Shown: one piece after another, positions 2,080 through 60,811 of the stretch
Layout of the letters: each line of letters opens with the position of its first letter
How positions within the stretch are numbered: the stretch's first letter is position 1
Assembly (NCBI GenBank): GCA_004353515.1
Contig: SMNZ01000005.1
Span: 248,001-312,000, forward strand
Length of the DNA stretch: 64,000 nucleotides
Direction of reading: 5' to 3'
Origin: Alteromonadaceae bacterium M269
GTDB lineage: Bacteria; Pseudomonadota; Gammaproteobacteria; Enterobacterales; Alteromonadaceae
The notes under the pieces: model-generated
Told to the model about the DNA's origin: nothing
The model's input: only the letters and a program-made list of their open reading frames with translations
Database searches by the model: none
Position numbers and translations under genes: made by a program

Positions 2080-2400
2080 TCACTTTTTGGTATAAATTGG
2101 GCTTGGGAACTGTGCAACTTTATCTGATAACTCAGTAATTTTTGCAGAGCCTTGCTTCTCAACTTCGTCTATTCTTAGCACGCTGTGCATAGGGATATAA
2201 GTGTGCTTGACGCCTTCAAATTCGTCCTTCAATTTTTCATGAGAAGGGTCTAAAACCAAGCTAGTATGCGTATCCCAAACAAAGCCACCTATTTCAACAA
2301 ATCCAAACATTGAGCTTTGCGTGACCTCTCTTACATATAATTCATAGCGTTCGCCATTGCTGATGAATTGAATTTTGAATAAAGGTTGTTTTTCACTCAC
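2080..2400 (-). CDS. DUF1820 family protein
   Basis: This 106-residue soluble protein begins at a GTG with an AAGG ribosome site about nine bases upstream. It carries the pattern 'LFKIQF.S.GE.YELYVREV.QS.MFGFVEI..FVWD...LVLDPSHEKLKDEF.GV..TYIPMHSVLRIDEV', which matches the DUF1820 family (conserved in gammaproteobacteria including Pseudomonas) over nearly its whole length. The biochemical role is unknown. The invariant 'H.VLRIDEVEK' strand suggests a small beta-rich fold. It is a single gene with no obvious operon partner. Confidence 0.75.
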   Translation of the reverse strand: MSEKQPLFKIQFISNGERYELYVREVTQSSMFGFVEIGGFVWDTHTSLVLDPSHEKLKDEFEGVKHTYIPMHSVLRIDEVEKQGSAKITELSDKVAQFPSPIYTKK

Positions 2401-2534
2401 GCACTTAGCCTTGAATTTGTCTTAAAAGGGGCTGGATTTTAGCGGGAAATAACATTGATATAAAGTGCTTGTATATTCGAATACAAGGAAATACCTAAGC
2501 AAGTGGGTTCCAAGAATCGCTAGTTAATCTCGGG

Positions 2535-3104
2535 TTAGTTGGAAAGAGGCCCTAGCAAAGCTCTTGTCGCTATCTTAAGTTCATCAGTACCGCTAGCGAT
2601 GATGCCATTGACTGCAAAGCCTTGAACATAACTCGTTAGCTGTAAGGCTGTTGACTCAATATTGATATCGGAGCGTATTTGTCCTTTTTGCTGCGCATTT
2701 TCAAGACAACCAATAAAGCCCAACTGGAGCCTATCGATGTAATGACGACCAATATCTTTTATTTTGTCGTCGTCGTAACCCAATTCGGTTATTGCATTGA
2801 TGAGCAAACAACCTTTTCCGTTAACTAACTCTATATAGGCTTCAAAAAACTGTTCAATCGATACTAGTCCTTGATGGCTATCCAGATGTGAAACTATTGG
2901 ATTTAGCTGTGTTTCTTGATAGTGCAGAATGACTTTATAGAAAAACTCCTGTTTGCTCGAAAACTCTAAATAAAAGCCTCTACGATTAAAGTCTGTCCGG
3001 GCAATGAGCTCATCTAATATAGTGCCATGATAGCCGTGCTCGAGTAATACATCGATAGATAAGGAGAGGACTTGATCGATATTGTAGAGTGCTTTTCTTG
3101 GCAT
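2535..3104 (-). CDS. TetR/AcrR family transcriptional regulator
   Basis: The product is a 189-residue repressor-type protein. The N-terminal helix-turn-helix spans about residues 10-50, with the recognition region 'LIARTDFNRRGFYLEFSSKQEFFYKVI' split over two helices. The C-terminal ligand domain (about 75-189) includes 'GKGCLLINAITELG', a cysteine-containing segment seen in TetR regulators of the electrophile-responsive type. The ATG at 3104 is preferred over the TTG four codons upstream, although neither has a strong ribosome site. The target is probably nearby or its own promoter, but no operator could be assigned. It is distinct from SlmA at 5.2 kb. Confidence 0.8.
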   Translation of the reverse strand: MPRKALYNIDQVLSLSIDVLLEHGYHGTILDELIARTDFNRRGFYLEFSSKQEFFYKVILHYQETQLNPIVSHLDSHQGLVSIEQFFEAYIELVNGKGCLLINAITELGYDDDKIKDIGRHYIDRLQLGFIGCLENAQQKGQIRSDINIESTALQLTSYVQGFAVNGIIASGTDELKIATRALLGPLSN

Positions 3105-3223
3105 CTGTAAAGTCAAAAGAACGTTAATTCTTAGTAGACTAGTGTCTTGTAGAAAGATGTCAAGCAGCTATCTCTAGCATTTTTTTAACGATTAGATTAC
3201 CGTTGCGGCGGTTTAAGATAATA

Positions 3224-3405
3224 GGGTCTGTTGATCTTTGTGGGCAGTATGGCTAAAAAAGAGCCGCTGCCCAAAGGGCTGAAGCTAAAATGGTCCATCC
3301 CTATGTTGTCAATGACTTATTTGGATGGCCAAACGGCGTCCTTGACGCCTTGGTCTAGACCATTTTATCGTTCAGCATAAAAAATGAACAAAGATCAACA
3401 AACCC
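3224..3405. repeat. MITE-like element, GGGTCTGTTGATCTTTG family, copy A (182 bp)
   Basis: The element fills most of the 350-base gap before the M28 peptidase. Its ends are inverted copies of GGGTCTGTTGATCTTTG (3224-3240 and 3389-3405). The interior is also largely self-complementary: GGGCAG...CTGCCC at 3241-3272, AAAATGGTC...GACCATTTT nested inside, and GGCGTC/GACGCC near the centre. No reading frame is present. The left flank ends in TA. It shares its ends, but not its interior, with copies B-D, and resembles the remnant F in both ends and interior. Confidence 0.75.
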
Positions 3406-3470
3406 AAGAATAAGCTCTTAATTACATTGAGATGGTGTTTCTCAATGACTGCATTGAATAGGTTGTACAT

Positions 3471-5129
3471 ATGAACAAATCTTTAAAGATTGGATTATTG
3501 GCGGCAGTTGTAGGTATTTCTGCTTGTCAGGTTGATGTCCAGTCAACAACGACGAGCACTGAATCGGCTGCTCCTCTTGAAGCAGACTCAAGCCGCATCA
3601 AAGCGCACTTAGGTTTTCTAGCACACGATTTATTAGAAGGGCGTGATACCGGATCTCGTGGTCACGAACTTGCAACGCTTTATATCGCTTCACAGTTTGA
3701 GCAATACGGCTTAACTCCCATGGGAGATGACGACAGCTATATGCAGCGTGTTACTTTCCGTCAAGCGTTTCTTGATCAAGATTCTCCAACTTTAACATTG
3801 ACTAGGGACGGCCAAACTCAGTCGTTAGACTACCCTGCTCAATACATTACTGGCCCTAGCACACTTTACACAGATGCATCTGTATCTGCAGAAATGGTGT
3901 TTGTTGGTTACGGTATTGTCGCTCCTGAGTTGTCGCACAATGACTATGAAGGTTTAGATGTTGATGGCAAAGTGGTTGTGATGTTATCTGGTAAGCCAGC
4001 TTCTTTTCCTACTGAAGAAGGTGCACACTTTAGTTCTGGTGCTGAGAAAAGTCGCCATGCTGAAGAAAACGGTGCTATAGGTATCATTACTGTTAGTACA
4101 CCAACGGCTGAAAAAGCTCGACCTTATCAAAATCAGTTGAACTTTTTGCATGCTCCTCGTGTCCGCTGGGTTGGCAAAGATGGACAACCAGCCAATGTTT
4201 ATCCAAACCTGAAGAACAGCGCTTACTTTAGCCAAAAAGCGGCTGAAATTCTTTTTGAAGGAAGTGAACGTTCTCTCGAAGAGATATACAAGGACTTGGA
4301 AGCTGATAAGTCGCCAAAAGGGTTTGATTTAGCCTATACCTTAGATTTTTCCAAAAAGAGCACGCACAAGGAAATCACCAGCCCTAACGTTGTCGGTATG
4401 TTAGAAGGTAGCGACCCTGTATTGAAGAATGAGTATGTTGTTTATTCTGCGCACTCTGATCATATCGGTTTAGCCAAAACTGTTAAGAAAGACAAAATCA
4501 ATAATGGTGCTATGGATAATGCCAGCGGTACTTCTATCATGATTGAAACGGCTAGATTGTTCAGTGAGTTGGAAAACCGCCCTAAGCGTTCAATGTTGTT
4601 TGTTGCTGTGACTGGTGAAGAGAAAGGCTTGTTAGGTGCGGATTACTATGCGCGTAACCCAACCGTTGGTGAAGGTAAAATGGTTGCCAACGTTAACCTT
4701 GATATGCCGTTGATTACCCATGACTTCGCGGACCTGATTGCTTTTGGTGCTAATCACAGTGATCTGAAAGGCTCTGTCCAAGAAGCGGTAACTCAAGTTG
4801 GTCTTGAATTAGCAGAAGATCCGTGGCCCGAGCTGAATTTATTCACACGCTCTGATCACTACAGCTTTGTGAAGCAAGGTGTTCCAGCGGTGTTCTTATT
4901 CCCGGGATTGAAGTCTAACTCTACCGATATCGACGGAAGTAAAGAGTTCAGCCGCTTTATGGCTGCGCATTACCACAAGCCATCTGATGAACTTAATGAT
5001 GACTTTAACTGGAATGCCGCTAAGAACTTTGCGCAAATCAACTTCCAAATTGGTTTAACCATTGGTAATCAAGCTGAAAAACCAAAGTGGAACGAAGATA
5101 GTTTCTTTGGAAATACTTTCGGGAAATAA
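3471..5129 (+). CDS. M28 family zinc aminopeptidase, lipoprotein
   Basis: This 552-residue exported peptidase has a lipoprotein signal with lipidated Cys at about residue 19 (GISAC). A protease-associated (PA) insert spans about 130-260 and the M28 catalytic domain about 300-535. The metal-site motifs are visible in order: H-S-D-H near 327, 'NNGAMDNASGT' near 343-353, the catalytic 'GEEKGLLG' near 382, 'NVNLDMP' near 408 and 'SDHYSFVKQGVPAVFLF' near 461. It should remove N-terminal residues from peptides in the periplasm or at the outer membrane. It is a single gene between a MITE-like repeat and a bidirectional terminator. Substrate specificity cannot be read from the sequence. Confidence 0.88.
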   Translation: MNKSLKIGLLAAVVGISACQVDVQSTTTSTESAAPLEADSSRIKAHLGFLAHDLLEGRDTGSRGHELATLYIASQFEQYGLTPMGDDDSYMQRVTFRQAFLDQDSPTLTLTRDGQTQSLDYPAQYITGPSTLYTDASVSAEMVFVGYGIVAPELSHNDYEGLDVDGKVVVMLSGKPASFPTEEGAHFSSGAEKSRHAEENGAIGIITVSTPTAEKARPYQNQLNFLHAPRVRWVGKDGQPANVYPNLKNSAYFSQKAAEILFEGSERSLEEIYKDLEADKSPKGFDLAYTLDFSKKSTHKEITSPNVVGMLEGSDPVLKNEYVVYSAHSDHIGLAKTVKKDKINNGAMDNASGTSIMIETARLFSELENRPKRSMLFVAVTGEEKGLLGADYYARNPTVGEGKMVANVNLDMPLITHDFADLIAFGANHSDLKGSVQEAVTQVGLELAEDPWPELNLFTRSDHYSFVKQGVPAVFLFPGLKSNSTDIDGSKEFSRFMAAHYHKPSDELNDDFNWNAAKNFAQINFQIGLTIGNQAEKPKWNEDSFFGNTFGK

Positions 5130-5147
5130 CCTGATATCACTAATCAT

Positions 5148-5177
5148 AAAAAAACCCGCTTTTTAGCGGGTTTTTTA
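5148..5177. terminator. Bidirectional rho-independent terminator
   Basis: AAAAAACCCGC and GCGGGTTTTTT form an 11-base stem around a short T/A loop. Both arms end in runs of A and T, so it can end transcription of the M28 gene on the plus strand and of slmA on the minus strand. Confidence 0.9.
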
Positions 5178-5196
5178 TTACAACTGTAAAAAGCTT

Positions 5197-5787
5197 TTAA
5201 ACAAAGAATTGAGCTTTAATGACTTGCCATTGCTCGCTGAAGCCTTCTGTAGGGCGGCGAGTAAATTCACTTCTAATAAACTGATTGATACGACCATCAG
5301 TAAAACAAATTAGCAAGTTAGCAATCAGTGCTTCATCTGCACTCAATGCTTTGCCCTCACGCAGTTTACGCTCACGTAGCACTTGTCTTAGTTGTGTTTC
5401 TAAACGCTCAAAAAGCTGAGCTATACGAGTTCGCAATCTGTCTTGCTCACCCATTAACGCGTCGCCATTGAGTATGCGAGTGATGCCGGGGTTTTTCTCG
5501 GCAAAGCCAAGAAGTAAGTGCATAATAAGCTGACAGCGTGTTGCCGTGTCTTTCTCTTCACTGAGTATCTTGCTAATACGTGAGAAAAGTGTCTCTTCAA
5601 TGAACTCTATCAAGCCTTCAAACATACGAGCTTTGCTCGGGAAGTGTCTATACAAAGCAGCTTCTGACACACCAACCTGTGCGGCTAATTTTGCTGTAGT
5701 AATACGTTGTCCAGGGTTTGTTTCAAGCATGCTGGCGAGCGATTGTAATATTTGTGCCCGCCGATTGGGCCGCTTACTAGCTGGCAT
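5197..5787 (-). CDS. slmA: Nucleoid occlusion factor SlmA
   Basis: The 196-residue product is a TetR-family DNA-binding protein that, in E. coli, binds sites across the chromosome and blocks FtsZ ring assembly over the nucleoid. The N-terminal '[18 protein letters not shown]' leads into a helix-turn-helix at about 28-60 with '[32 protein letters not shown]', almost diagnostic for SlmA. The length matches the family (198 in E. coli). It lies downstream of coaBC on the same strand, a conserved neighbourhood. A hairpin at 5861-5906 separates the two genes, so it may have its own promoter. No SlmA binding site was identified in the window. Confidence 0.95.
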
Positions 5788-5860
5788 GACTACTCCTTGC
5801 CGTTAGAAGTTTAAAGGTCATTTGAGCGAATACCTTTTGTACATTGTTCATTTCATTTTC

Positions 5861-5906
5861 CGAGACTAAGCCTATTTAGGAGGCTCAAATAATGAGCTTA
5901 GTCTCG
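5861..5906. terminator. 11-bp inverted repeat between coaBC and slmA
   Basis: CGAGACTAAGC at 5861-5871 is repeated exactly inverted at 5896-5906, enclosing 24 bases. On the minus strand it lies just after the coaBC stop. No T-run follows, so it may be a pause, an attenuator, a processing site or an operator rather than a simple terminator. Confidence 0.5.
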
Positions 5907-5921
5907 ACCCGTTAAAGCCTA

Positions 5922-7130
5922 CTATCGGCTTTCAGCGTGAAACCTTTGTGCAACAAGTGCCAATAAATTTCTCGCTAGTGTTTGTTTGTCTGTCAAAGGC
6001 AATGCTTGTTCACCATCTTTCCAAAAGACGGTGAGCGCATTGTTGTCGCTGTTAAATCCGATGGATTTGTCAGAGACGTCGTTAGCCGCGATCATATTGA
6101 GTTTTTTACGCTCTAGTTTCCCTTTTGCATAATGTGCAACATCCTGTGTTTCAGCGGCAAAACCAACTGTAAAAGGAGCATCAGTTTTAGATGCAATAGT
6201 TGCAAGGATATCAGGGTTTTTGACAAGAGTAAGTGTTAACTCATCGTCTTTTGTCTTTTTAATTTTCTGATCAACTATCTCAGCTGTTCTATAGTCAGCT
6301 ACGGCTGCGCAGGCGATAAAAATGTCACAATCAGCAACTCTTTCTTCTACAGCATCAAGCATCTGCTGTGCGCTAGAAACATCTACACGCTCACACCCTA
6401 AGGGCGATTCCAGGTTAACAGGGCCTGAAACCAAACTGACTTTTGCGCCCATAGATGCAGCAGCTTGCGCAATGGCGTATCCCATTTTGCCAGAGCTGAA
6501 GTTACTAATGTAGCGCACTGGGTCAATATTTTCTCGTGTTGGGCCTGCAGTAATGACAATATGTTTGCCAGCGAATTCATTTGAAGACTGAGGCGCATTA
6601 AGTCGTTCGACTATATCCAATGGCTCTAACATTCGGCCTGGACCTACATCCCCACAAGCTTGAGAGCCTTCATCTGGGCCCAACATCAAGACACCACGTT
6701 CTCTCAATATAGCTAAATTATGCTGTGTTGCTGTGGCAGCCCACATTTGTTGGTTCATGGCAGGTGCCATGACTAGTTTTGCTGTTGTTGCTAAGCATAA
6801 TGTCGTTAGCAAATCGTCAGCTAAACCATATGTAATCTTAGCCATAATATTAGCAGTTGCCGGTGCGATAAGAATGATATCCGCCCATTTTGCTAATTCG
6901 ATATGACCCATTGCAGCTTCTGCAGCAGGGTCGAGTAGACTATCTGAAACAGGTAACCCTGAAACGGCCTGCAAAGACAATGTGCTAACAAATTCTTTCG
7001 CTGATTGAGTCAATACGACGCGTACGTTAGCGCCTGCAGCTTTTAATTTCCTAACAAGATCTGGCGTTTTATAGGCAGCAATTCCACCAGAAACACCTAA
7101 AAGCACATTTTTGTTTAATAACTGGGACAT
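5922..7130 (-). CDS. coaBC: Bifunctional phosphopantothenoylcysteine decarboxylase / phosphopantothenate-cysteine ligase
   Basis: This 402-residue enzyme performs two steps of coenzyme A synthesis: CTP-dependent coupling of cysteine to 4'-phosphopantothenate, then FMN-dependent decarboxylation to 4'-phosphopantetheine. The N-terminal CoaC flavoprotein half (about 1-180) shows 'GVSGGIAAYKTPDLVRKL', 'SLSL' and the substrate loop 'APAMNQQMW'. The C-terminal CoaB half (about 187-402) begins with 'ITAGPTRENIDPVRYISN' and 'SSGKMGYAIA'. The length agrees with E. coli (406). coaD, a later step, lies 4 kb away in the window. It is divergent from radC across 126 bases. Confidence 0.96.
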   Translation of the reverse strand: MSQLLNKNVLLGVSGGIAAYKTPDLVRKLKAAGANVRVVLTQSAKEFVSTLSLQAVSGLPVSDSLLDPAAEAAMGHIELAKWADIILIAPATANIMAKITYGLADDLLTTLCLATTAKLVMAPAMNQQMWAATATQHNLAILRERGVLMLGPDEGSQACGDVGPGRMLEPLDIVERLNAPQSSNEFAGKHIVITAGPTRENIDPVRYISNFSSGKMGYAIAQAAASMGAKVSLVSGPVNLESPLGCERVDVSSAQQMLDAVEERVADCDIFIACAAVADYRTAEIVDQKIKKTKDDELTLTLVKNPDILATIASKTDAPFTVGFAAETQDVAHYAKGKLERKKLNMIAANDVSDKSIGFNSDNNALTVFWKDGEQALPLTDKQTLARNLLALVAQRFHAESR

Positions 7131-7256
7131 AGTAAAGAAAGGGTTAACGTTGTAATATGAGTCAAAGAATGAAGAATAACATTATTGGCTGTTTTTGGCT
7201 TGCTTTGATAGTGTTATTTATTACTACTTAAGTATGACAACCATGGAAGGATTGAT

Positions 7257-7931
7257 ATGAAAATAATGGATTGGCCCCAGCAAGAACGCCCTCGTGAAAA
7301 ATTATTGAGCAAAGGCCCAGAGCAGCTCAGTGATGCAGAACTACTCGCCATTTTCTTACGCACTGGATTACCAGGTATTAGCGCCGTTGATTTAGCTCGA
7401 GGTTTGCTTAACGAGTTCGGGGATTTAAGAGAGTTACTGTCCAGTGATGTTTCCAGATTTTGCCAAGGCAAAGGTTTAGGTATCGCTAAATTTGTGCAGT
7501 TGCAAGCGACGTTGGAAATGGCGAGGCGTTACTACCAACTGCAACTAGAAAGAACGAATGCTTTTTCGAATGTAAATCAGACAGTCCGCTTTTTAATGAG
7601 TCGACTGAGGGATGAAGATCGAGAAGTTTTTGCCTTATTACTGCTCGATAGCCAGCATCAGTTGATCGAATATAAAGCGTTGTTTTATGGCAGTATTGAT
7701 AGCGCCGTCGTGTACCCCAGAGAGATTGTTAAGCTAGTCCTCGATAAGCAAGCTGCCGCTGTCATACTGGCACACAACCACCCTTCTGGTGTTGCAGAAC
7801 CTAGCATTGCAGATAAGCAAATTACTCAGCGAATAAAGTCTGCGCTTGAATTGATTGATGTCACAGTTTTAGACCATCTTATTATTGGCGATGGGCAATC
7901 GGTGTCTTTTGCACAAAGAGGATTAATATAA
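7257..7931 (+). CDS. radC: RadC family JAB1/MPN-domain protein
   Basis: The 224-residue product has an N-terminal helix-hairpin-helix-like region ('[27 protein letters not shown]', about 8-35) and a C-terminal JAB/MPN metalloprotease-like domain. The latter carries the metal motif 'HNHPSG' near residue 173 followed by the conserved 'D' of '[10 protein letters not shown]'. Despite its name the E. coli protein has no proven DNA repair role. Start ATG 7257 is preceded by AAGGA at a good distance. In many gammaproteobacteria radC is directly followed by rpmB; here a glycosyltransferase gene stands between them. Confidence 0.93.
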
Positions 7932-8059
7932 ACGTAAGGAAGGTGTCATCATCCGGTCATCTAAATTACGTATTGCTAGTGCGTGTTGATTTCTGCTGTT
8001 TAGAATAAATCCATACGGCAAAAAAACATGCACTAGGTTCATATAAAGGGTAATCAACT

Positions 8060-8884
8060 TTGTCTATCAAAATCAGCGTAATCTTTACGACCTATAATTC
8101 TCCTGACTGGATGGAAAAAGTGCTTTGGGGGTTTGAGAATCAGACTTTTAAAGACTTCGAGATCATTGTTGCGGATGATGGTTCAACTGAAGAGACAGAA
8201 AAGCGATTGTCTGAGTTCAAAAAAAACAGTTGGATGAAGATAAAGCATGTTTGGCAGAAAGATAAAGGATTCAGAAAAACGCGAATTCTCAATAAAGCCA
8301 TAGTGAAAAGTAAAAATGAGTATTTAGTTTTCACCGACGGTGACTGTATTCCGAGAAGTGACTTTCTGGAAGTGCATGCGAAAAAGGCTAAGAAAGGGTA
8401 CTTCTTGTCTGGTGGTTATCTAAAGCTGCCTATGGCTACTAGTGAGCTTATTAACGAGAAGCATATCAAGCTAGGTAAAGCATTTGATGCTGAGTGGTTG
8501 AAGAGCAAGGGGTTAGAAGATACGCATAAACTGATGAAGCTGACAGCGTCTGGATGGAAAGAAAAAATCTATAATAGTCTGACGCCAGCTAAAGCAACTT
8601 GGAATGGACACAATGCCTCAGGGTGGCGAAAAGATATTGTTGCAGCAAATGGTTTTGATGAGCGCATGCAATATGGTGGAGAGGACCGAGAGTTAGGTGA
8701 GCGCCTATTTAATCGTGGGTTAAAATCTAAACAAATTAGGTATTCAGCGATCTGCGTCCATTTAGATCACGCTAGGGGCTATGTTACCCAAGAAATGCTT
8801 AAGAAAAACAAGAAGATAAGAAAAGATACCAAACGTAAAAAGCTCACTCGTACTGCTCACGGGATCATAAAAGATCCTAATTGA
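8060..8884 (+). CDS. Family 2 glycosyltransferase
   Basis: The 274-residue enzyme begins at TTG with AAAGGG ten bases upstream; no ATG exists before the conserved first strand (SVIFTTYNSPDWMEKVL). The GT-A fold is evident from 'VADDGSTEET' near residue 38, the D-x-D-type 'TDGDCIP' near 92 and the C-terminal 'NGFDERMQYGGEDRELGERLFNRGLK' near 195-220, typical of the GT2 galactosyltransferase-type C-terminal region. The acceptor is probably a lipopolysaccharide or other surface glycan, given the surface cluster 3 kb away. Placement between radC and rpmB, and codon use richer in AAA/AAG than the neighbours, suggest acquisition by transfer. This is an inference. Confidence 0.85.
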   Translation: MSIKISVIFTTYNSPDWMEKVLWGFENQTFKDFEIIVADDGSTEETEKRLSEFKKNSWMKIKHVWQKDKGFRKTRILNKAIVKSKNEYLVFTDGDCIPRSDFLEVHAKKAKKGYFLSGGYLKLPMATSELINEKHIKLGKAFDAEWLKSKGLEDTHKLMKLTASGWKEKIYNSLTPAKATWNGHNASGWRKDIVAANGFDERMQYGGEDRELGERLFNRGLKSKQIRYSAICVHLDHARGYVTQEMLKKNKKIRKDTKRKKLTRTAHGIIKDPN

Positions 8885-8897
8885 TTGTAGAGAGTAG

Positions 8898-8926
8898 TTG
8901 AATCACCCTGGAATATACTGTATAAA
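8898..8926 (+). promoter_or_regulatory. Predicted sigma-70 promoter of rpmB-rpmG
   Basis: TTGAAT at 8898-8903 and TATAAA at 8921-8926 are separated by 17 bases, with TG directly before the -10 box (extended -10). The result is a leader of roughly 85 bases before rpmB, as expected for a strong ribosomal-protein promoter. Confidence 0.7.
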
Positions 8927-9018
8927 GTGCGCCCTCTTATATCTAGAGTAGATAGACTGACTGCGAATAACTCATGGGCTGTCAGCGTTATAGTTAAGTT
9001 AATGTGGAGACAATTACG

Positions 9019-9255
9019 ATGTCCAAAGTATGTCAAGTCACTGGCAAACGTCCTGCGGTAGGTAACAACCGCTCACACGCCAGAAATTCGACCAGACGCC
9101 GCTTTTTGCCTAATCTACAAACTCACCGTTTTTGGGTTGAAAGCGAAAACCGTTTCGTTAAATTGCGCCTTACTCCAAAAGGTATGCGCATTATCGATAA
9201 AAAAGGCATTGATTCAGTACTAACTGATATCCGTGCACGTGGCGAAAAAATTTAA
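9019..9255 (+). CDS. rpmB: 50S ribosomal protein L28
   Basis: The 78-residue protein begins '[12 protein letters not shown]', the universal L28 start, and contains '[19 protein letters not shown]' and '[15 protein letters not shown]'. The length matches E. coli (78). I use ATG 9019, with GTGGAGA at 9004-9010 as ribosome site, and not the in-frame GTG at 9004, which is part of that site. It is followed after 12 bases by rpmG in the usual L28-L33 operon. Confidence 0.98.
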
Positions 9256-9267
9256 GGAAGTTGTATC

Positions 9268-9423
9268 ATGCGTGACAAAATCAAATTGGTTTCTTCTGCG
9301 GGTACAGGTTTTTACTACACCACAGATAAAAACAAGCGTAACATGCCAGGCAAAATGGAGATCAAAAAGTACGATCCCGTTGTGCGTAAGCACGTAATGT
9401 TTAAGGAAGCAAAAATCAAGTAA
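9268..9423 (+). CDS. rpmG: 50S ribosomal protein L33
   Basis: A 51-residue frame runs from ATG 9268 to TAA 9421-9423 and reads [14 protein letters not shown], then [11 protein letters not shown] and [18 protein letters not shown]. This is a full-length L33 of the type lacking the zinc-binding cysteines (the C-minus form). AAGGAAG at 9254-9260 provides the ribosome site. The gene is too short for ORF filters of 60 residues or more and would be missed by them. It forms an operon with rpmB and ends before a clear terminator. Confidence 0.98.
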
Positions 9424-9449
9424 TCTGACTTGTTTATTGTCTCCAAGCA

Positions 9450-9470
9450 AAGCCCGGTTTTCCGGGTTTT
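9450..9470 (+). terminator. Rho-independent terminator after rpmG
   Basis: AAGCCCGG, a TTTT loop and CCGGGTTTT form a short G+C-rich stem followed by T residues, 27 bases after the rpmG stop. Confidence 0.85.
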
Positions 9471-9631
9471 GTCGTATCTGAACAACGGAAATATGAATTC
9501 ATAATTATTTGAGGCGTGTGTAGTTGGACACAATCACTTTCGAAGGTGATGGGTGAAAGATACAAAAAAATACTCATGTTCACTGTGTTACGATAAACGC
9601 CTATGTTTCAGAATGCTATGAGTTTTGCCTT

Positions 9632-10096
9632 ATGATTCGATTAGGCCAAAAAGGGGCAAATAACGTACTTATCTTCAGTATGATTATACTGATTGTGCTT
9701 TTTAGTCGGATGGATCGATTGTTTGGTCCTGACCAAGAAAGTATTCAAGGTATTGTTCCTTTATTACCTCAAGATAGCCCGTTGATTACATTAGATTTTG
9801 GTCAACACCAGATCCAACGTATTGGTAAAGGTTGGCGTATCAAGCCTGGGTTAAGTGATTCAGAGCAAGACATTGCTGATATTGCTCATCGTTGGCAAAC
9901 AACAGAGATGATTCTCTACAGTCAGGTAACCTTAACTGAACCCTATGTTGTTGTTGCGTGGCTGGCTGGAGAGGACAAAGGACGTGTTTTTAAGTTGATG
10001 TCTTTTGGTACGGATCTGTTAGTTGAATATCAACAACAAGTGTATCTTATTGCTGAACAACCCCTATCATCATTTATTCCACAGGAATTGCATTAA
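9632..10096 (+). CDS. Hypothetical membrane-anchored protein upstream of mutM
   Basis: The 154-residue product has one N-terminal membrane helix (about residues 11-26) and a soluble domain of about 120 residues, probably in the periplasm, with the pattern 'ITLDFG.H.IQRIGKGWRI' and 'WLAGEDKGRVFKL'. The stop overlaps the mutM start by one base (TAATG), so the two genes are translationally coupled. I recall similar small anchored proteins before mutM in other gammaproteobacteria but cannot name a function. A link to DNA repair is not supported by the sequence. Confidence 0.7.
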   Translation: MIRLGQKGANNVLIFSMIILIVLFSRMDRLFGPDQESIQGIVPLLPQDSPLITLDFGQHQIQRIGKGWRIKPGLSDSEQDIADIAHRWQTTEMILYSQVTLTEPYVVVAWLAGEDKGRVFKLMSFGTDLLVEYQQQVYLIAEQPLSSFIPQELH

Positions 10097-10908
10097 TGCC
10101 CGAGTTACCTGAAGTTGAAGTTAGCCGATTAGGTATTACTCCTCACATTCTAAATCAAACGATAGATAAAATAGTCATTAGGCAAAGGCAATTACGCTGG
10201 CTTATTCCTGAAGAAATTAATGATGCAGTGGGCTTAGAGATATCAGCCGTAAAAAGAAGGGCTAAGTACCTGTTAATCGAAACTCAAGCGGGGACAATCA
10301 TCTTACATTTGGGAATGTCAGGTAAGCTGAGGGTCGTGCCTGTTGAAACAGCGCTAGTGAAGCATGATCATGTAGATATCTGTTTGAGTAACGGCATGTG
10401 CCTTCGTTTCAATGATCCAAGACGTTTCGGAGCGTGCCTATGGCAAGCTTCTGACAGTGAAGGCTTGGATATTATGAATAACCTAGGTCCAGAACCGCTA
10501 ACAGATGACTTTGATGGGCAGCGCCTTTTTGAACTATCGAGAACCAAGTCTCAAGCTGTTAAGAACTTTATTATGGATAATAAAGTGGTTGTTGGTGTTG
10601 GGAATATCTATGCGAATGAATCTCTGTATTTATCTAAAGTGAACCCTCTTAAATCAGCAAAGAAAATCACCAAGAAGCAGTATTTGCTCTTAGCTGAAAA
10701 TATTAAGCTCGTTTTAGCAAGGGCAATAAAGCAGGGTGGAACAACACTTAAAGATTTTGCACAGGCTGACGGTCAACCAGGATATTTTGCGCAGGAGCTG
10801 CATGTGTATGCTCGTAAAGGCGAGGAATGTAAAGTGTGTTCAACAGAGATCGAATCTGTGGTTATTGGGCAGCGTAATAGCTTCTACTGCCCTAAATGCC
10901 AAGCTTAG
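10096..10908 (+). CDS. mutM: Formamidopyrimidine-DNA glycosylase
   Basis: This 270-residue base-excision repair enzyme removes 8-oxoguanine and formamidopyrimidines and nicks the strand by beta,delta-elimination. The N-terminus 'MPELPEVE' supplies the catalytic Pro2 and Glu3. The conserved Lys is in 'KRRAKYLL' (about 53-60). The helix-two-turn-helix region includes 'NFIMDNKVVVGVGNIYANE'. The C-terminal zinc finger has four cysteines (C-K-V-C and C-P-K-C, about 248-268) and 'GQRNSFYCPKCQ'. The length matches E. coli (269). Its start overlaps the preceding stop by one base. Confidence 0.97.
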   Translation: MPELPEVEVSRLGITPHILNQTIDKIVIRQRQLRWLIPEEINDAVGLEISAVKRRAKYLLIETQAGTIILHLGMSGKLRVVPVETALVKHDHVDICLSNGMCLRFNDPRRFGACLWQASDSEGLDIMNNLGPEPLTDDFDGQRLFELSRTKSQAVKNFIMDNKVVVGVGNIYANESLYLSKVNPLKSAKKITKKQYLLLAENIKLVLARAIKQGGTTLKDFAQADGQPGYFAQELHVYARKGEECKVCSTEIESVVIGQRNSFYCPKCQA

Positions 10909-10938
10909 AGAAAATAGGTTATAAGAGCTTAGGAGCTT

Positions 10939-11457
<519 letters not shown>

Positions 11458-50694: not shown

Positions 50695-51336
50695 CTATAT
50701 TTTCTTGCGCTTCGCCACTAAACCCAAAATACCGAATAAACACAGAACTATGCTCGAGGGCTCAGGCACAGGTGTGCTGTCTAGGCGTACTTGAGTCAGT
50801 TGCCAATTAGCGTAGGTAAAAGTGCCAAAGAGCGAAGAGTCCCTTAACGTGTTCTCTGCGCTAAATCTGATACTGTCTGCAGCACTTCCGTTAAAATTAT
50901 CGACAGTCGAAAAGAAGACATTTATGCCGGCGATGTCATAAGGCGTATAGACAGAGCAAGCTCTGCTACTGTTACATCCGAAAGTTAGAGTGCTGTCCGT
51001 ATCGAACAAACCTGCGTTGTTATCAACGAAAACAAAAGCGTCTAAAGCTGTCGAAAATATGAGACTTTGCGTTACAGTTCTTGCATCAAGCCCTGTCGTC
51101 CCTCCAAATATATCTATGAAGCTACCATCTTGGAATGCGACATCATAGAACGTTCCATTGACGTTCACATTAAATGCACCAACGAGTTGCCCGCCTTGGA
51201 TATCAAAGACAATATCTGATTCTGTTGAAAGGCTTAATACTTCATCTCCATTGCTAAGAAGTAGTGTTGATTGTGCGTTGTATGAAAATAGAATGCTAAG
51301 AGCAGCGAAAATAGAAATAATCCATGTATTTTTCAT
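50695..51336 (-). CDS. PEP-CTERM sorted secreted protein
   Basis: The 213-residue product has a signal peptide (about 1-23, ending AQS) and a C-terminal sorting tail: the motif VPEPSS, a membrane helix of about 17 residues and a basic end (AKRKKI). This PEP-CTERM architecture marks proteins cut and sorted by exosortase (EpsH/XrtA) in exopolysaccharide producers. The mature part is rich in D, S, T, F, with a likely disulfide-forming pair in 'FGCNSSRACSVY'. Its role is unknown; many such proteins are biofilm-matrix components. A second PEP-CTERM gene lies at 60.1 kb. No exosortase gene is in the window. Confidence 0.88.
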   Translation of the reverse strand: MKNTWIISIFAALSILFSYNAQSTLLLSNGDEVLSLSTESDIVFDIQGGQLVGAFNVNVNGTFYDVAFQDGSFIDIFGGTTGLDARTVTQSLIFSTALDAFVFVDNNAGLFDTDSTLTFGCNSSRACSVYTPYDIAGINVFFSTVDNFNGSAADSIRFSAENTLRDSSLFGTFTYANWQLTQVRLDSTPVPEPSSIVLCLFGILGLVAKRKKI

Positions 51337-55698: not shown

Positions 55699-56610
55699 CT
55701 ATCTTTCGCTACAGCTTGCACCTAGTGCGAAACAGCTGTAGCACCTGTGATGTTTCATACTGATAGAAGCTTCTAGGCTCTCGTTTAATTGGTTGCCCAA
55801 ATCATATTCCTCGTCATCGTCGACTAAGGTGCAGGCATAAACGCGCATCTGTCCTTCTTTCTTGATAATCATCCTAGAGCTTGCGCACATAAACGAGCGG
55901 CGCTGCTCTTCCGTTTGATAATGTGTCATGCAGTGTTCAGAGATATGAGGTACATCTGGCAATGAACCAGGCGGTAAAAAATCGGGAAACGCGACTATGT
56001 TAGTGTCTTCAGGTAAGCCGTTTAGGGAGAAGACTTGATGGAACTGCTGAGTAACTTCATCGCTATCTTCATCGGTTTTCATATGGCGTGCTATTGAAAC
56101 TGGAAAACCCGCCTGATGAAGCTTTCTTAATCCAATCAGTGCCTGTTCGAATTGGCCTGCACCTCTGCCTTGGTTGTGAAGTTGAGGATTGGGTGAATCC
56201 AAGCTGATGCGAAATGAAATAGGGTGCTTACTCTGTATTTCTTTGAGCGCTTCGAAGCGCTTTAACAAGGGCTCAGTTCCATTCGTTAGCACGAGGCAAG
56301 GTTTGTATTGAGACGCGTAAGCCAGGATATCGACAATATCTTTGACCAGCATGGGTTCACCGCCAGTAAAGGAAAACTGTTCGACACCTAAGGTAAGAGC
56401 TTCATCTAAATAAGGCTTAACTTCTCCAAACTTCGGTGATTGAAGCCGCTTGTCACTTGGAGATGAGCCCTCTAAGCAAAAATCACAAGACAAGTTGCAA
56501 CGAGTTCCCGTGTGAAACCACAGCTCTTTTAGCGCATGTGCACGGATGTAACCTCTGGGATCACCATTGGGCGTGAAGTGCCATGCATCACTGCGTTGAA
56601 GTTCAGCCAC
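55699..56610 (-). CDS. Radical SAM protein coupled to arsM
   Basis: The 303-residue enzyme carries the radical SAM cluster motif C-N-L-S-C-D-F-C (CxxxCxxC) near 38 and 'FSFTGGEP' near 79 (SAM-binding GGE). The C-terminus has a conserved cysteine set, 'CASS...VYACTL...HHRCYSCFALGASC', suggesting an auxiliary Fe-S cluster or metal site. I start at GTG 56610, which shares a base with the arsM stop (TAGTG) and has GGAGG nine bases upstream. The strict coupling suggests it acts on the methylated arsenical. It does not look like ArsS (the known arsenosugar radical SAM enzyme) and the reaction is unknown. Confidence 0.85.
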   Translation of the reverse strand: MAELQRSDAWHFTPNGDPRGYIRAHALKELWFHTGTRCNLSCDFCLEGSSPSDKRLQSPKFGEVKPYLDEALTLGVEQFSFTGGEPMLVKDIVDILAYASQYKPCLVLTNGTEPLLKRFEALKEIQSKHPISFRISLDSPNPQLHNQGRGAGQFEQALIGLRKLHQAGFPVSIARHMKTDEDSDEVTQQFHQVFSLNGLPEDTNIVAFPDFLPPGSLPDVPHISEHCMTHYQTEEQRRSFMCASSRMIIKKEGQMRVYACTLVDDDEEYDLGNQLNESLEASISMKHHRCYSCFALGASCSER

Positions 56611-57653
56611 TAACAGCACCCTCCAGTTGTTGGCTGACTATTTTCATCAAATGGAATAGCAGTATCTCCAACGAGAGACATGCCCTTATGCTCGCTAAAA
56701 TCTCCGCTAAACTCAAAGTTTTCAGCAAAGCGGCTACTCTTCAAAATTCGGTAGGTATTTCCGCAGACTGGAGTGGTGGCGCCTTTCTTAAAAGCGTAGT
56801 GCTTGTCTAATACGAGTTGACAGGAGTGATGCTCTACGCCACCCAAATAAGTGACTGTTTGGCCATAATCTTCTCGTGTTCTCTCCAATTCATCTGTTTT
56901 GAATAAGCGATAAGTCGCTGAGTAAAAGGCTATGTGGCCTACTTTTTCAGCGACGGCATCGTTATTAATACCGAGTCTACGATCTTTGACCAACCTTGGA
57001 TCGGCGAAACCAACGTTTTGAGATAGCTGAATGAAGTCATTCCAATAAAGGGCTCCACCAAGGCATTCGCCGTAAAGGACAGGATCCGATACCAAGTGCT
57101 GTGGGATACGGCGATCAGCGTAGACATCCGAAAAATACAGCTCGCCGCCAGGTTTTAATACTCGGTAAGCTTCTTTTAAGACATTTTCTTTATCAGGGCA
57201 CAGATTGATAACACAGTTTGATACAATGATATCAATGCTGTTATCAGCAAGATCAAGCTCATTCAAACGCTCGATATAGCCTTTCTTAAAAACCGTGTTT
57301 GCCTTTTGATAACCGAACTTTTCTCGATGATATTCGATGTGTTGATTGGCAACGGCAAGCTGCTCATCCGTCATATCGACACCAATCACCTCACCTTCTT
57401 CTCCGACCATCTGTGCTAAGGCGTAACAATCACGACCAGCACCGCAGCCTAGATCTAAAATGCGTTTACCTTTGAGTGATTGAGGGAGAACAAGGCCGCA
57501 GCCATAGTAACGTTTGAGAACTTCATCGTGGATATTAGCTAATGCACTCTTCACAAAATCAGGAATGACTTCGTCCGTTGCGCAAGCATCTGTTTGGAGA
57601 TCTTCTGATTCTTGCAAGACTTTGCCATAGTAGTTTTTTACTTCGTTGTGCAT
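56610..57653 (-). CDS. arsM: Arsenite S-adenosylmethionine methyltransferase
   Basis: The 347-residue protein has a class-I methyltransferase fold with 'ILDLGCGAGRDCYALAQMV' near 66 and 'IGVDMTDEQL' near 90. The cysteines expected of an As(III)-binding methyltransferase are in 'QTDACATDEV' near 24, 'SNCVINLCPDK' near 150 and 'GECLGGALYWND' near 194, with a C-terminal CC. 'YFSDVYADRRIP' and 'YSATYRLFK' agree with the ArsM family. Arsenite is methylated to mono- and dimethylarsenicals. A canonical promoter precedes it and AGGAGT its ATG. No arsR or arsenite pump is in the window, so the role may be biosynthetic rather than resistance alone. Confidence 0.87.
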   Translation of the reverse strand: MHNEVKNYYGKVLQESEDLQTDACATDEVIPDFVKSALANIHDEVLKRYYGCGLVLPQSLKGKRILDLGCGAGRDCYALAQMVGEEGEVIGVDMTDEQLAVANQHIEYHREKFGYQKANTVFKKGYIERLNELDLADNSIDIIVSNCVINLCPDKENVLKEAYRVLKPGGELYFSDVYADRRIPQHLVSDPVLYGECLGGALYWNDFIQLSQNVGFADPRLVKDRRLGINNDAVAEKVGHIAFYSATYRLFKTDELERTREDYGQTVTYLGGVEHHSCQLVLDKHYAFKKGATTPVCGNTYRILKSSRFAENFEFSGDFSEHKGMSLVGDTAIPFDENSQPTTGGCC

Positions 57654-58361: not shown

Positions 58362-58404
58362 TAAAGTGTTTTTTTAAACTTTTTTCAAAAAAGAGGAAAA
58401 GGTG

Positions 58405-58845
58405 ATGGAAGATGCAAATTTATCCGTAGGTTATGTGGCAAAAAGAACGGGTGTAAAAGTATCGACTTTGCACTTCTATGAGGAGAAAGGACTAATCTTC
58501 AGTTGGCGTAATCATGGTAATCAACGTCGTTATAAGCGTGATGTGCTGAGACGTATCTCCATTATCAAGGCTGCGCAGAGGTTAGGTGTTAGTTTGGAAG
58601 TGATCAAACAAACGTTCAACGAGTTACCTAATAATAAGACGCCCGACAAAGAAGATTGGAAAGCGTTATCGAAACGATGGCAGAACCAATTGGAAGAGCG
58701 TATTCAGTCCTTGATTAAGTTGCGTGACTCTCTAGATGGTTGTATTGGTTGTGGTTGTTTATCAATGCAGAGTTGCCCTATCTATAACCCCGAGGATGCG
58801 CTTGAAAGCGAAGGTCCTGGCCCTGTTATTCTCAATCGGAAATAG
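58405..58845 (+). CDS. soxR: Redox-sensitive transcriptional activator SoxR
   Basis: The 146-residue MerR-family regulator has the N-terminal winged helix 'LSVGYVAKRTGVKVSTLHFYEEKGLI' near 5-31, a dimerisation helix near 80-115 and the [2Fe-2S] cluster motif 'CIGCGCLSMQSC' near 119-130, with the four cysteines of SoxR in the correct C-x2-C-x-C-x5-C spacing. It is oxidised or reduced by redox-cycling compounds. ATG 58405 (after GAGGAAAAGG) is preferred to the GTG directly before. It lies immediately after the SoxR box; no soxS is present, as in most non-enteric bacteria where SoxR regulates target genes directly. Confidence 0.95.
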   Translation: MEDANLSVGYVAKRTGVKVSTLHFYEEKGLIFSWRNHGNQRRYKRDVLRRISIIKAAQRLGVSLEVIKQTFNELPNNKTPDKEDWKALSKRWQNQLEERIQSLIKLRDSLDGCIGCGCLSMQSCPIYNPEDALESEGPGPVILNRK

Positions 58846-60082: not shown

Positions 60083-60811
60083 TTAGTGAGTAGCTTTCGA
60101 CTTGTATCTCGATGTAAACAATGCACCTAGTCCCATTAGCAATAAAAAATTGATTGCTGGCTCTGGCACTTGGCTAACAGTCACATTGAATATTTCACCG
60201 CTGAGCCCGTCGCGAATTAGGTCTTGTGTAACCAAAGCATTTCTAGCATTGATAAATGTTTCTACTTGAGTATCAGAGTAATCGACAGTTGCATTTTCCA
60301 AGTTCAGCGCAATCTCAAAGATTGTAGTTGCATCTAGAGTATTAACGTCTGAAAAGACACCATTATTATCTTGTCTTATACCGATTTCTTCTTGGAAAAA
60401 CTGATCGCCAGGAGCTGGGTTATTAGGGACAGTTGAACTGAAAGAAGTGAGAAACACGCCATCATTGTCACTAGCAATATCAATAGTGTTACCAAATTGA
60501 GTTCCGCCAGCTAGAGAGAATACACTCCCAGCAGGTAAGCTGAGTGTTAAGTCACTGAATGCGTAACGTCCTCCAGTGATGCTTGTGTTTCCGTCTGTTT
60601 GATTCGCTTCAACTCTAAAACTACCAGCGAATGTACTGCCAACAGTTAATCCATTGGTTGGGTTTCCAACAACGGAAACATCGCCAAGTTGTTCTGTGTC
60701 GGTAACGCGTACTTGAAAATCAAACTGAAATATTAAGGCAGCCTTTGCCGATAGGGGCATACTTGCGCACAGGATAATTGACAAAATTGCTATAAATCTA
60801 GGTGTTTGCAT
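60083..60811 (-). CDS. PEP-CTERM sorted secreted protein
   Basis: The 242-residue product has a signal peptide (about 1-24, ending AKA) and a C-terminal sorting tail 'VPEPAINFLLLMGLGALF' followed by basic residues (SRYKSKATH). The mature part is rich in T, N, D, V, G and contains 'FQFDFQVRVTD' and 'ATVDYSDTQVETF', beta-rich and without cysteine. The tail is the exosortase recognition form. It shares the tail design, but not obvious sequence, with the gene at 50.7 kb. Function unknown. It is flanked by ltaE (convergent) and the esterase gene. Confidence 0.85.
   Translation of the reverse strand: MQTPRFIAILSIILCASMPLSAKAALIFQFDFQVRVTDTEQLGDVSVVGNPTNGLTVGSTFAGSFRVEANQTDGNTSITGGRYAFSDLTLSLPAGSVFSLAGGTQFGNTIDIASDNDGVFLTSFSSTVPNNPAPGDQFFQEEIGIRQDNNGVFSDVNTLDATTIFEIALNLENATVDYSDTQVETFINARNALVTQDLIRDGLSGEIFNVTVSQVPEPAINFLLLMGLGALFTSRYKSKATH

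What the first reader, a model, noticed from the sequence alone, without database searches (positions are those of the whole stretch)
55699..57653. arsM coupled by TAGTG to a radical SAM enzyme not resembling ArsS: candidate organoarsenical pathway
ArsM cysteine sites and SAM motif are visible. The next gene is coupled by stop-start overlap and has a CxxxCxxC radical SAM motif plus a conserved C-terminal cysteine group. Known radical SAM partners are ArsS (arsenosugar) and ArsL (arsinothricin); the sequence I see lacks the features I recall for ArsS, while the C-terminal R-C-Y-S-C could be compared with the As-binding C-terminal motif of ArsL. A role in making a non-trivial arsenical is inference. 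No arsenite pump or ArsR is nearby.
Basis: partly seen in the sequence, partly recalled or inferred. Interest (0 to 1): 0.6.

Follow-up and report, generated by a model that had tools for sequence, protein, structure and literature searches.

The report
Alternative ArsS-like enzyme beside arsM
A bacterial arsenic-methylating gene is followed by a gene for an uncharacterised radical enzyme which, in dozens of other bacteria, sits among putative arsenosugar genes where the known enzyme ArsS would be, so it is probably a second, unnamed way to build sugar-linked arsenic compounds.

Summary
arsM (56610-57653, minus strand) is translationally coupled by TAGTG, with a GGAGG ribosome site, to a radical SAM gene (55699-56610). 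ArsM is a standard arsenite methyltransferase with all four catalytic cysteines. The radical SAM protein fails the ArsS profile (50 bits, cut-off 300) and does not have ArsL's architecture. It belongs to a distinct family with no equivalog in NCBIfam, with orthologues in Proteobacteria, Kiritimatiellota, Planctomycetota and others.

Of 91 loci holding this family, 82 carry ArsM or the two "arsenosugar" transferases TIGR04282/TIGR04283 within 6 kb; many also carry an MTA phosphorylase, some an ArsC. The window's genome keeps TIGR04282, MTA phosphorylase, a glycosyltransferase and DUF547 at a second locus; relatives have them contiguous with arsM-rSAM. Genomes with this rSAM never have ArsS (0 of 60; ArsS is in 182 of 369 Gammaproteobacteria). 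Canonical ArsS takes the same place beside the same kind of ArsM elsewhere, and on the ArsM tree the partner switched at least four times.

Best explanation: an alternative arsenosugar-type synthase that adenosylates methylated As(III). The chemistry is inferred, and ArsM is missing from about a third of the genomes. New variant of a known kind.

The parts
56610..57653 (-). arsM, SAM-dependent arsenite methyltransferase, 347 aa
   Evidence: PDB ArsM hits E 3e-97; Cys24/52/146/198 align with the conserved ArsM cysteines; below the NCBIfam cut-off of every ArsM equivalog
55699..56610 (-). radical SAM gene of an unnamed ArsS-like family (303 aa from the GTG in TAGTG; 306 aa from the GTG at 56619)
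   Evidence: CNLSCDFC, TGGEP and six further invariant Cys in 57-58 homologues; Pfam PF04055; AF2 model pLDDT 93.3
56608..56612 (-). TAGTG stop-start overlap coupling arsM to the rSAM gene
   Evidence: read directly
56620..56624 (-). GGAGG ribosome-binding site, 9 nt before the GTG start
   Evidence: read directly
55711..55743 (-). codons of the C-terminal cysteine motif CYSCFALGASC (residues 293-303 in the 306-aa numbering)
   Evidence: invariant Cys293, Cys296, Cys303
56476..56499 (-). codons of CNLSCDFC, the radical SAM [4Fe-4S] ligand motif (residues 41-48 in the 306-aa numbering)
   Evidence: invariant Cys41, Cys45, Cys48

Best explanation
The rSAM is the key enzyme of an arsenosugar-type pathway and stands in for ArsS. 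ArsM makes mono- or dimethylarsenite. The rSAM cleaves SAM to a 5'-deoxyadenosyl radical and joins it to the trivalent methylated arsenic, giving a 5'-deoxy-5'-(dimethylarsino)adenosine. The MTA-phosphorylase homologue then replaces adenine by phosphate, as it does with the structurally similar methylthioadenosine. TIGR04282, TIGR04283 and/or the DPM1-like transferase activate and transfer the arseno-ribose to an acceptor. Shown here: gene identities, conserved clustering, mutual exclusion with ArsS, exchange of ArsS and this rSAM beside ArsM. Inferred: every chemical step of the rSAM, the phosphorylase and the transferases.
For: Neighbours score as TIGR04282 and TIGR04283 'arsenosugar biosynthesis' transferases (below their cut-offs) and TIGR01694 MTAP (above cut-off), plus thioredoxin-type ArsC (below cut-off). 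82 of 91 loci have ArsM, TIGR04282 or TIGR04283 within 6 kb: 45 ArsM, 63 TIGR04282, 58 TIGR04283, 22 MTAP, 8 ArsC. 59 of 61 genomes with the rSAM hold TIGR04282 (194 of 369 in the class). ArsS is in 0 of 60 genomes with the rSAM but in 182 of 369 Gammaproteobacteria. All 8 rSAM genomes of that sample fall among the 20 that have TIGR04282 but no ArsS (hypergeometric p 1.6e-11). This kind of ArsM occurs in 24 ArsS genomes and 6 rSAM genomes and in only 2 of the rest (p 1e-7). Canonical ArsS sits beside the same ArsM with the same neighbours in 8 of 20 loci, once directly downstream with a 3-nt gap. At least 4 partner switches on the ArsM tree. Own genome: DPM1-like GT, DUF547, TIGR04282 and MTAP together at G000:C22, contiguous with arsM-rSAM in relatives L016, L027, L029. 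C-terminal Cys pattern parallels ArsS. ArsS adenosylates arsenic (Cheng et al. 2021, cited in PMC12159101).
Against: 21 of 60 genomes with the rSAM lack a close ArsM, and apart from one they show at best generic methyltransferases, so methylated arsenic made in-house cannot be the substrate everywhere; but 158 of 182 ArsS genomes lack this kind of ArsM too. Homology of the C-terminal domain to ArsS is only suggestive (hhalign E 0.003 over 19 columns). The profile closest to the rSAM core is Rv1681, not ArsS. TIGR04283 proper is not recognised in the window's own genome. The 'arsenosugar' names of TIGR04282/4283 are themselves annotations, not tests made here.
Confidence: 0.62

Rival explanations
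1. It is simply a divergent member of ArsS itself (TIGR04167).
For: Full-length profile alignment with ArsS, 22% identity, probability 98%; parallel C-terminal Cys motif; same gene neighbourhood.
Against: 50 bits against a 300-bit cut-off; separate clade, ArsS on a very long branch; never in the same genome, while the best true ArsS proteins reach 440-477 bits.
Confidence: 0.1
2. [quoted passage not shown]
For: arsM followed by a radical SAM gene, as in arsQML (PMC8552651).
Against: ArsL is 428 aa, motif at 194-201, only three conserved Cys; here 303 aa, motif near residue 41, nine invariant Cys. No ArsQ-type exporter was found beside the pair. MTAP and sugar-transferase neighbours fit an adenosyl product, not an aminocarboxypropyl one.
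Confidence: 0.07
3. The rSAM and transferases make a different, not necessarily arsenic, product (for example a modified nucleoside or glycolipid), and ArsM is a frequent but optional lodger.
For: About a third of genomes with the rSAM lack close ArsM while keeping TIGR04282/4283.
Against: ArsM of this kind is almost confined to genomes with ArsS or this rSAM; direct overlap coupling of arsM and rSAM in many taxa; ArsC in 8 loci; repeated exchange with ArsS beside ArsM. ArsM-less genomes might use methylarsenicals taken up from outside (inference).
Confidence: 0.15

Closest known systems
ArsS (TIGR04167), arsenosugar biosynthesis radical SAM (seleno)protein, with ArsM
   Same: Position beside ArsM, TIGR04282, TIGR04283, FAD reductase, ArsC, PiT; radical SAM core followed by MC...YxC...HCYxC...GxSC; similar length
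   Different: 50 vs 300 bits; no CNQQCLHCHVNAGP signature (CNLxCPFCLEGSKPGD instead); one extra invariant Cys (Cys230); separate clade; the two never share a genome in the sets searched
ArsL of Burkholderia gladioli arsQML (arsinothricin)
   Same: Radical SAM gene directly after arsM
   Different: 428 aa, motif at 194-201, three conserved Cys, arsQ exporter, ArsM acts after ArsL
Rv1681 family radical SAM protein (NF049973)
   Same: Best NCBIfam match to the radical SAM core (119 bits)
   Different: Far below the 380-bit cut-off; two Rv1681-like plasmid proteins lack the C-terminal Cys set
BlsE / SkfB / MoaA (solved twitch- or SPASM-type radical SAM enzymes)
   Same: Overall fold including the C-terminal domain (Z 20.6, 19.2, 17.4)
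   Different: 18-21% identity; unrelated substrates; fold similarity says nothing of the reaction

Membership tests
ArsS (TIGR04167) | Score above the curated cut-off of 300 bits | tested here: not met
   50.3 bits
ArsS (TIGR04167) | Falls inside the ArsS clade | tested here: not met
   New family, distant subfamily and ArsS are three separate groups; deep branching order unreliable
ArsS (TIGR04167) | C-terminal HC[YF]GCxAGxGSSC with upstream MC and YDC | tested here: inconclusive
   Parallel pattern FMC...VYAC...HHRCYSCFxxGASC; profile match of that domain alone E 0.003 over 19 columns
ArsS (TIGR04167) | Gene neighbourhood with ArsM, TIGR04282 and TIGR04283 | tested here: met
   (met by the family; in the window's genome TIGR04282 is on another contig and TIGR04283 is not recognised)
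ArsS (TIGR04167) | Adenosylation of dimethylarsenite | not testable with these tools
   needs enzyme assay
ArsL | About 428 aa, CX3CX2C near 194-201, only three conserved Cys | tested here: not met
   303 aa, motif near residue 41, nine invariant Cys against the published description (PMC8552651)
ArsL | Score against an ArsL profile | not tested
   No ArsL model among the best 25 families listed; no ArsL sequence was fetched
ArsM | SAM methyltransferase with four conserved As(III)-binding Cys | tested here: met
   E 3e-97 to solved ArsM; Cys24/52/146/198 aligned
Rv1681 family (NF049973) | Score above the curated cut-off of 380 bits | tested here: not met
   118.9 bits, radical SAM core only
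Radical SAM superfamily | CxxxCxxC, GGEP motif and PF04055 | tested here: met
   PF04055 E 3e-20; invariant in the alignment

The most novel reading that the evidence does not exclude
A second radical SAM family, distinct from ArsS, forms As-C bonds to the 5'-deoxyadenosyl group, and its partner MTA phosphorylase removes adenine by phosphorolysis. If the lipid-type (DPM1-like) transferase acts downstream, as in this genome, the end product may be a new arsenosugar lipid rather than the ArsS product.
Probability: 0.35. Interest if true: 0.75.

Novelty: new variant of a known kind. Interest (0 to 1): 0.6.

Why it matters
ArsS, ArsL and the methyltransferases are the SAM-dependent ways of forming carbon-arsenic bonds in bacterial natural products named in the review read here (PMC12159101). 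This would add an unnamed radical SAM family that is widespread, from marine Gammaproteobacteria to nitrifiers and Kiritimatiellota, and that replaces ArsS. It explains arsenosugar-type gene sets in genomes that lack ArsS, and its MTA-phosphorylase neighbour offers a concrete, testable enzyme for removing adenine on the way to arsenosugars. It also questions the annotation of the many ArsS-type clusters without ArsM.

Tried and rejected
Literature: nine full-text searches found no description of this family; the library holds only open-licence papers. The NCBIfam scan of the C-terminal 111 residues gave nothing useful. C-terminal domain alone against ArsS by hhalign: only a 19-column match, so homology of that domain is not claimed. 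The deep tree of rSAM families has a saturated ArsS branch, so branching order is not used. Promoter and terminator scans around the pair were at chance level. Fold search gave generic twitch/SPASM radical SAM matches and does not point to a reaction. Coincidental adjacency was considered and rejected.

Full report
Observation. On the minus strand arsM runs 57653-56610 and a radical SAM gene follows, ending at 55699. The stop TAG and start GTG overlap as TAGTG at 56612-56608, with GGAGG nine bases before the GTG. ArsM matches solved arsenite methyltransferases at E down to 3e-97, and its four conserved cysteines align. The second protein has CNLSCDFC, TGGEP and a Cys-rich C-terminus, and its Pfam domain is Radical_SAM.

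What the radical SAM protein is. NCBIfam gives no family above its cut-off: Rv1681 119 of 380 bits, ArsS (TIGR04167) 50 of 300 bits. It is single-copy in its genome. Orthologues at 51-69% identity occur in a minority of Gammaproteobacteria (7 of 369 in an even sample, the window's own genome included, plus one distant homologue at 36%) and also in Alpha- and Betaproteobacteria, Kiritimatiellota, Lentisphaerota, Planctomycetota, Omnitrophota and Hydrogenedentota (the 80 best of 234 candidates). Nine cysteines are invariant in 57 sequences: three of the radical SAM site and C230, C245, C263, C293, C296, C303. The predicted model is confident (pLDDT 93.3) and matches twitch/SPASM-type enzymes such as BlsE and SkfB over nearly its whole length, which fits an auxiliary Fe-S domain but not a particular reaction.

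Neighbourhood. ORF clustering and tblastn around 91 distinct loci show ArsM in 45, TIGR04282 in 63, TIGR04283 in 58, an MTA phosphorylase in 22, ArsC in 8 and a mercuric-reductase-like FAD enzyme in 41; 82 of 91 have at least one of ArsM, TIGR04282 or TIGR04283 within 6 kb. Family names were checked on representatives: the two transferases score below their cut-offs (106-128 of 134; 134-165 of 182), MTAP above. The Emcibacter locus L064 carries the whole set in 9 kb: ArsM, ArsC, PiT-type permease, VTT and FAD proteins, sigma and anti-sigma factors, TIGR04282, the rSAM, MTAP, TIGR04283.

The window's genome. The missing partners are not in the window but at G000:C22: a DPM1-like GT2, DUF547, TIGR04282 and MTAP in a row. 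In relatives (L016, L027, L029) the GT2, DUF547 and TIGR04282 genes directly precede arsM-rSAM and MTAP follows. The pair in the window therefore looks like one half of a divided gene set. No TIGR04283 protein proper is recognised in this genome.

Replacement of ArsS. In 369 Gammaproteobacteria ArsS occurs in 182, TIGR04282 in 194, this kind of ArsM in 32 and this rSAM (one distant homologue included) in 8. No rSAM genome has ArsS, all eight lie among the 20 genomes with TIGR04282 but no ArsS (p 1.6e-11), and 30 of the 32 ArsM genomes have ArsS or this rSAM (sample members share ancestry, so p values overstate independence). In a wider set, 0 of 60 rSAM genomes have ArsS and 59 of 61, the window's genome included, have TIGR04282. 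Of 20 ArsM loci fetched from ArsS genomes, 8 have ArsS within about 4 kb with the same companions; in L163 ArsM is followed by ArsS after 3 nt. On the ArsM tree the partner changes at least 4 times counting only adjacent ArsS, and 8 times counting ArsS anywhere in the genome (quick tree).

Relation to ArsS by sequence. A full-length profile alignment exists (22% identity, probability 98%), but any two radical SAM cores would align in part. The C-terminal cysteine pattern is parallel (FMC-x17-C ... CYSC-x6-C against VMC-x14-C ... CYGC-x7-C). The domain alone gives E 0.003, better than five unrelated radical SAM controls (0.19-0.54) yet short. I therefore say 'works like ArsS, probably distant kin', not 'is ArsS'. 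Two Rv1681-like proteins from actinobacterial plasmids lack these cysteines.

Mechanism. ArsS adenosylates arsenic (Cheng et al. 2021, cited in PMC12159101). By established knowledge, MTA phosphorylase splits 5'-methylthioadenosine, a close analogue of 5'-(dimethylarsino)adenosine. The proposed order is ArsC, ArsM, rSAM, MTAP, then the transferases. Everything after ArsM is inferred. MTAP could instead only recycle 5'-deoxyadenosine.

Weak points. 21 of 60 rSAM genomes have no close ArsM and, apart from one at 4e-54, at best generic methyltransferases. 158 of 182 ArsS genomes also lack this kind of ArsM. Either these take up methylated arsenic, use unrecognised methyltransferases, or the pathway has another substrate. 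Only experiments will tell.

Verdict. The ArsL comparison is not, and the 'unlike ArsS' claim is right for family membership but wrong for role. New variant of a known kind, interest 0.6.

Noticed in passing
G000:C22:451001-456100 (L110 about 6353-11072): The window genome's second locus: DPM1-like GT2, DUF547, TIGR04282 and MTAP in a row; adenosine kinase-like and S-adenosylhomocysteine hydrolase-like genes lie a few kb further on.
   Followed up: yes
369-genome Gammaproteobacteria sample: 158 of 182 genomes with canonical ArsS have no ArsM of this kind, so the arsenosugar annotation of most ArsS clusters lacks its expected methyltransferase.
   Followed up: partly
TIGR04282-positive genomes G067, G110, G114, G179, G249, G266, G269, G327, G347, G379, G397, G421: Twelve genomes have TIGR04282 but neither ArsS nor this rSAM; a third radical SAM type or assembly gaps may be involved.
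   Followed up: no
L142 (Roseomonas haemaphysalidis plasmid p546-1) 5016-11146: A distant (35%) subfamily of the rSAM sits with TIGR04282, DUF547, a second radical SAM gene and a phosphonate-type ABC transporter, perhaps for uptake of an arsenical or phosphonate.
   Followed up: no
L144 (Miltoncostaea oceani plasmid) 2399-8522; L143 (Mycolicibacterium vanbaalenii plasmid) 2949-8522: Rv1681-like radical SAM genes lie beside a glycosyltransferase and DUF2064 (the Pfam domain found in the window genome's TIGR04282 protein) in one case and a PhnD-like protein and a methyltransferase in the other, a possibly related pathway.
   Followed up: no
L064 6397-7296, L051, L020: Some clusters carry an ECF-type sigma factor and a small anti-sigma-like protein next to TIGR04282 and the rSAM, or a few genes upstream of arsM.
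   Followed up: no
L141 (Marinobacter adhaerens pHP-187) 9001-9916: A 54% identical rSAM copy is unannotated and matches in two pieces, so it may be frameshifted.
   Followed up: no
window 50695-51336 (-) and 60083-60811 (-): Two secreted proteins end in PEP-CTERM-like sorting signals (VPEPSS..., VPEPAI...).
   Followed up: no
window 58402-58845 (+): SoxR redox regulator (215 bits, cut-off 117) with no SoxS gene seen beside it, close to but divergent from the arsM pair.
   Followed up: no
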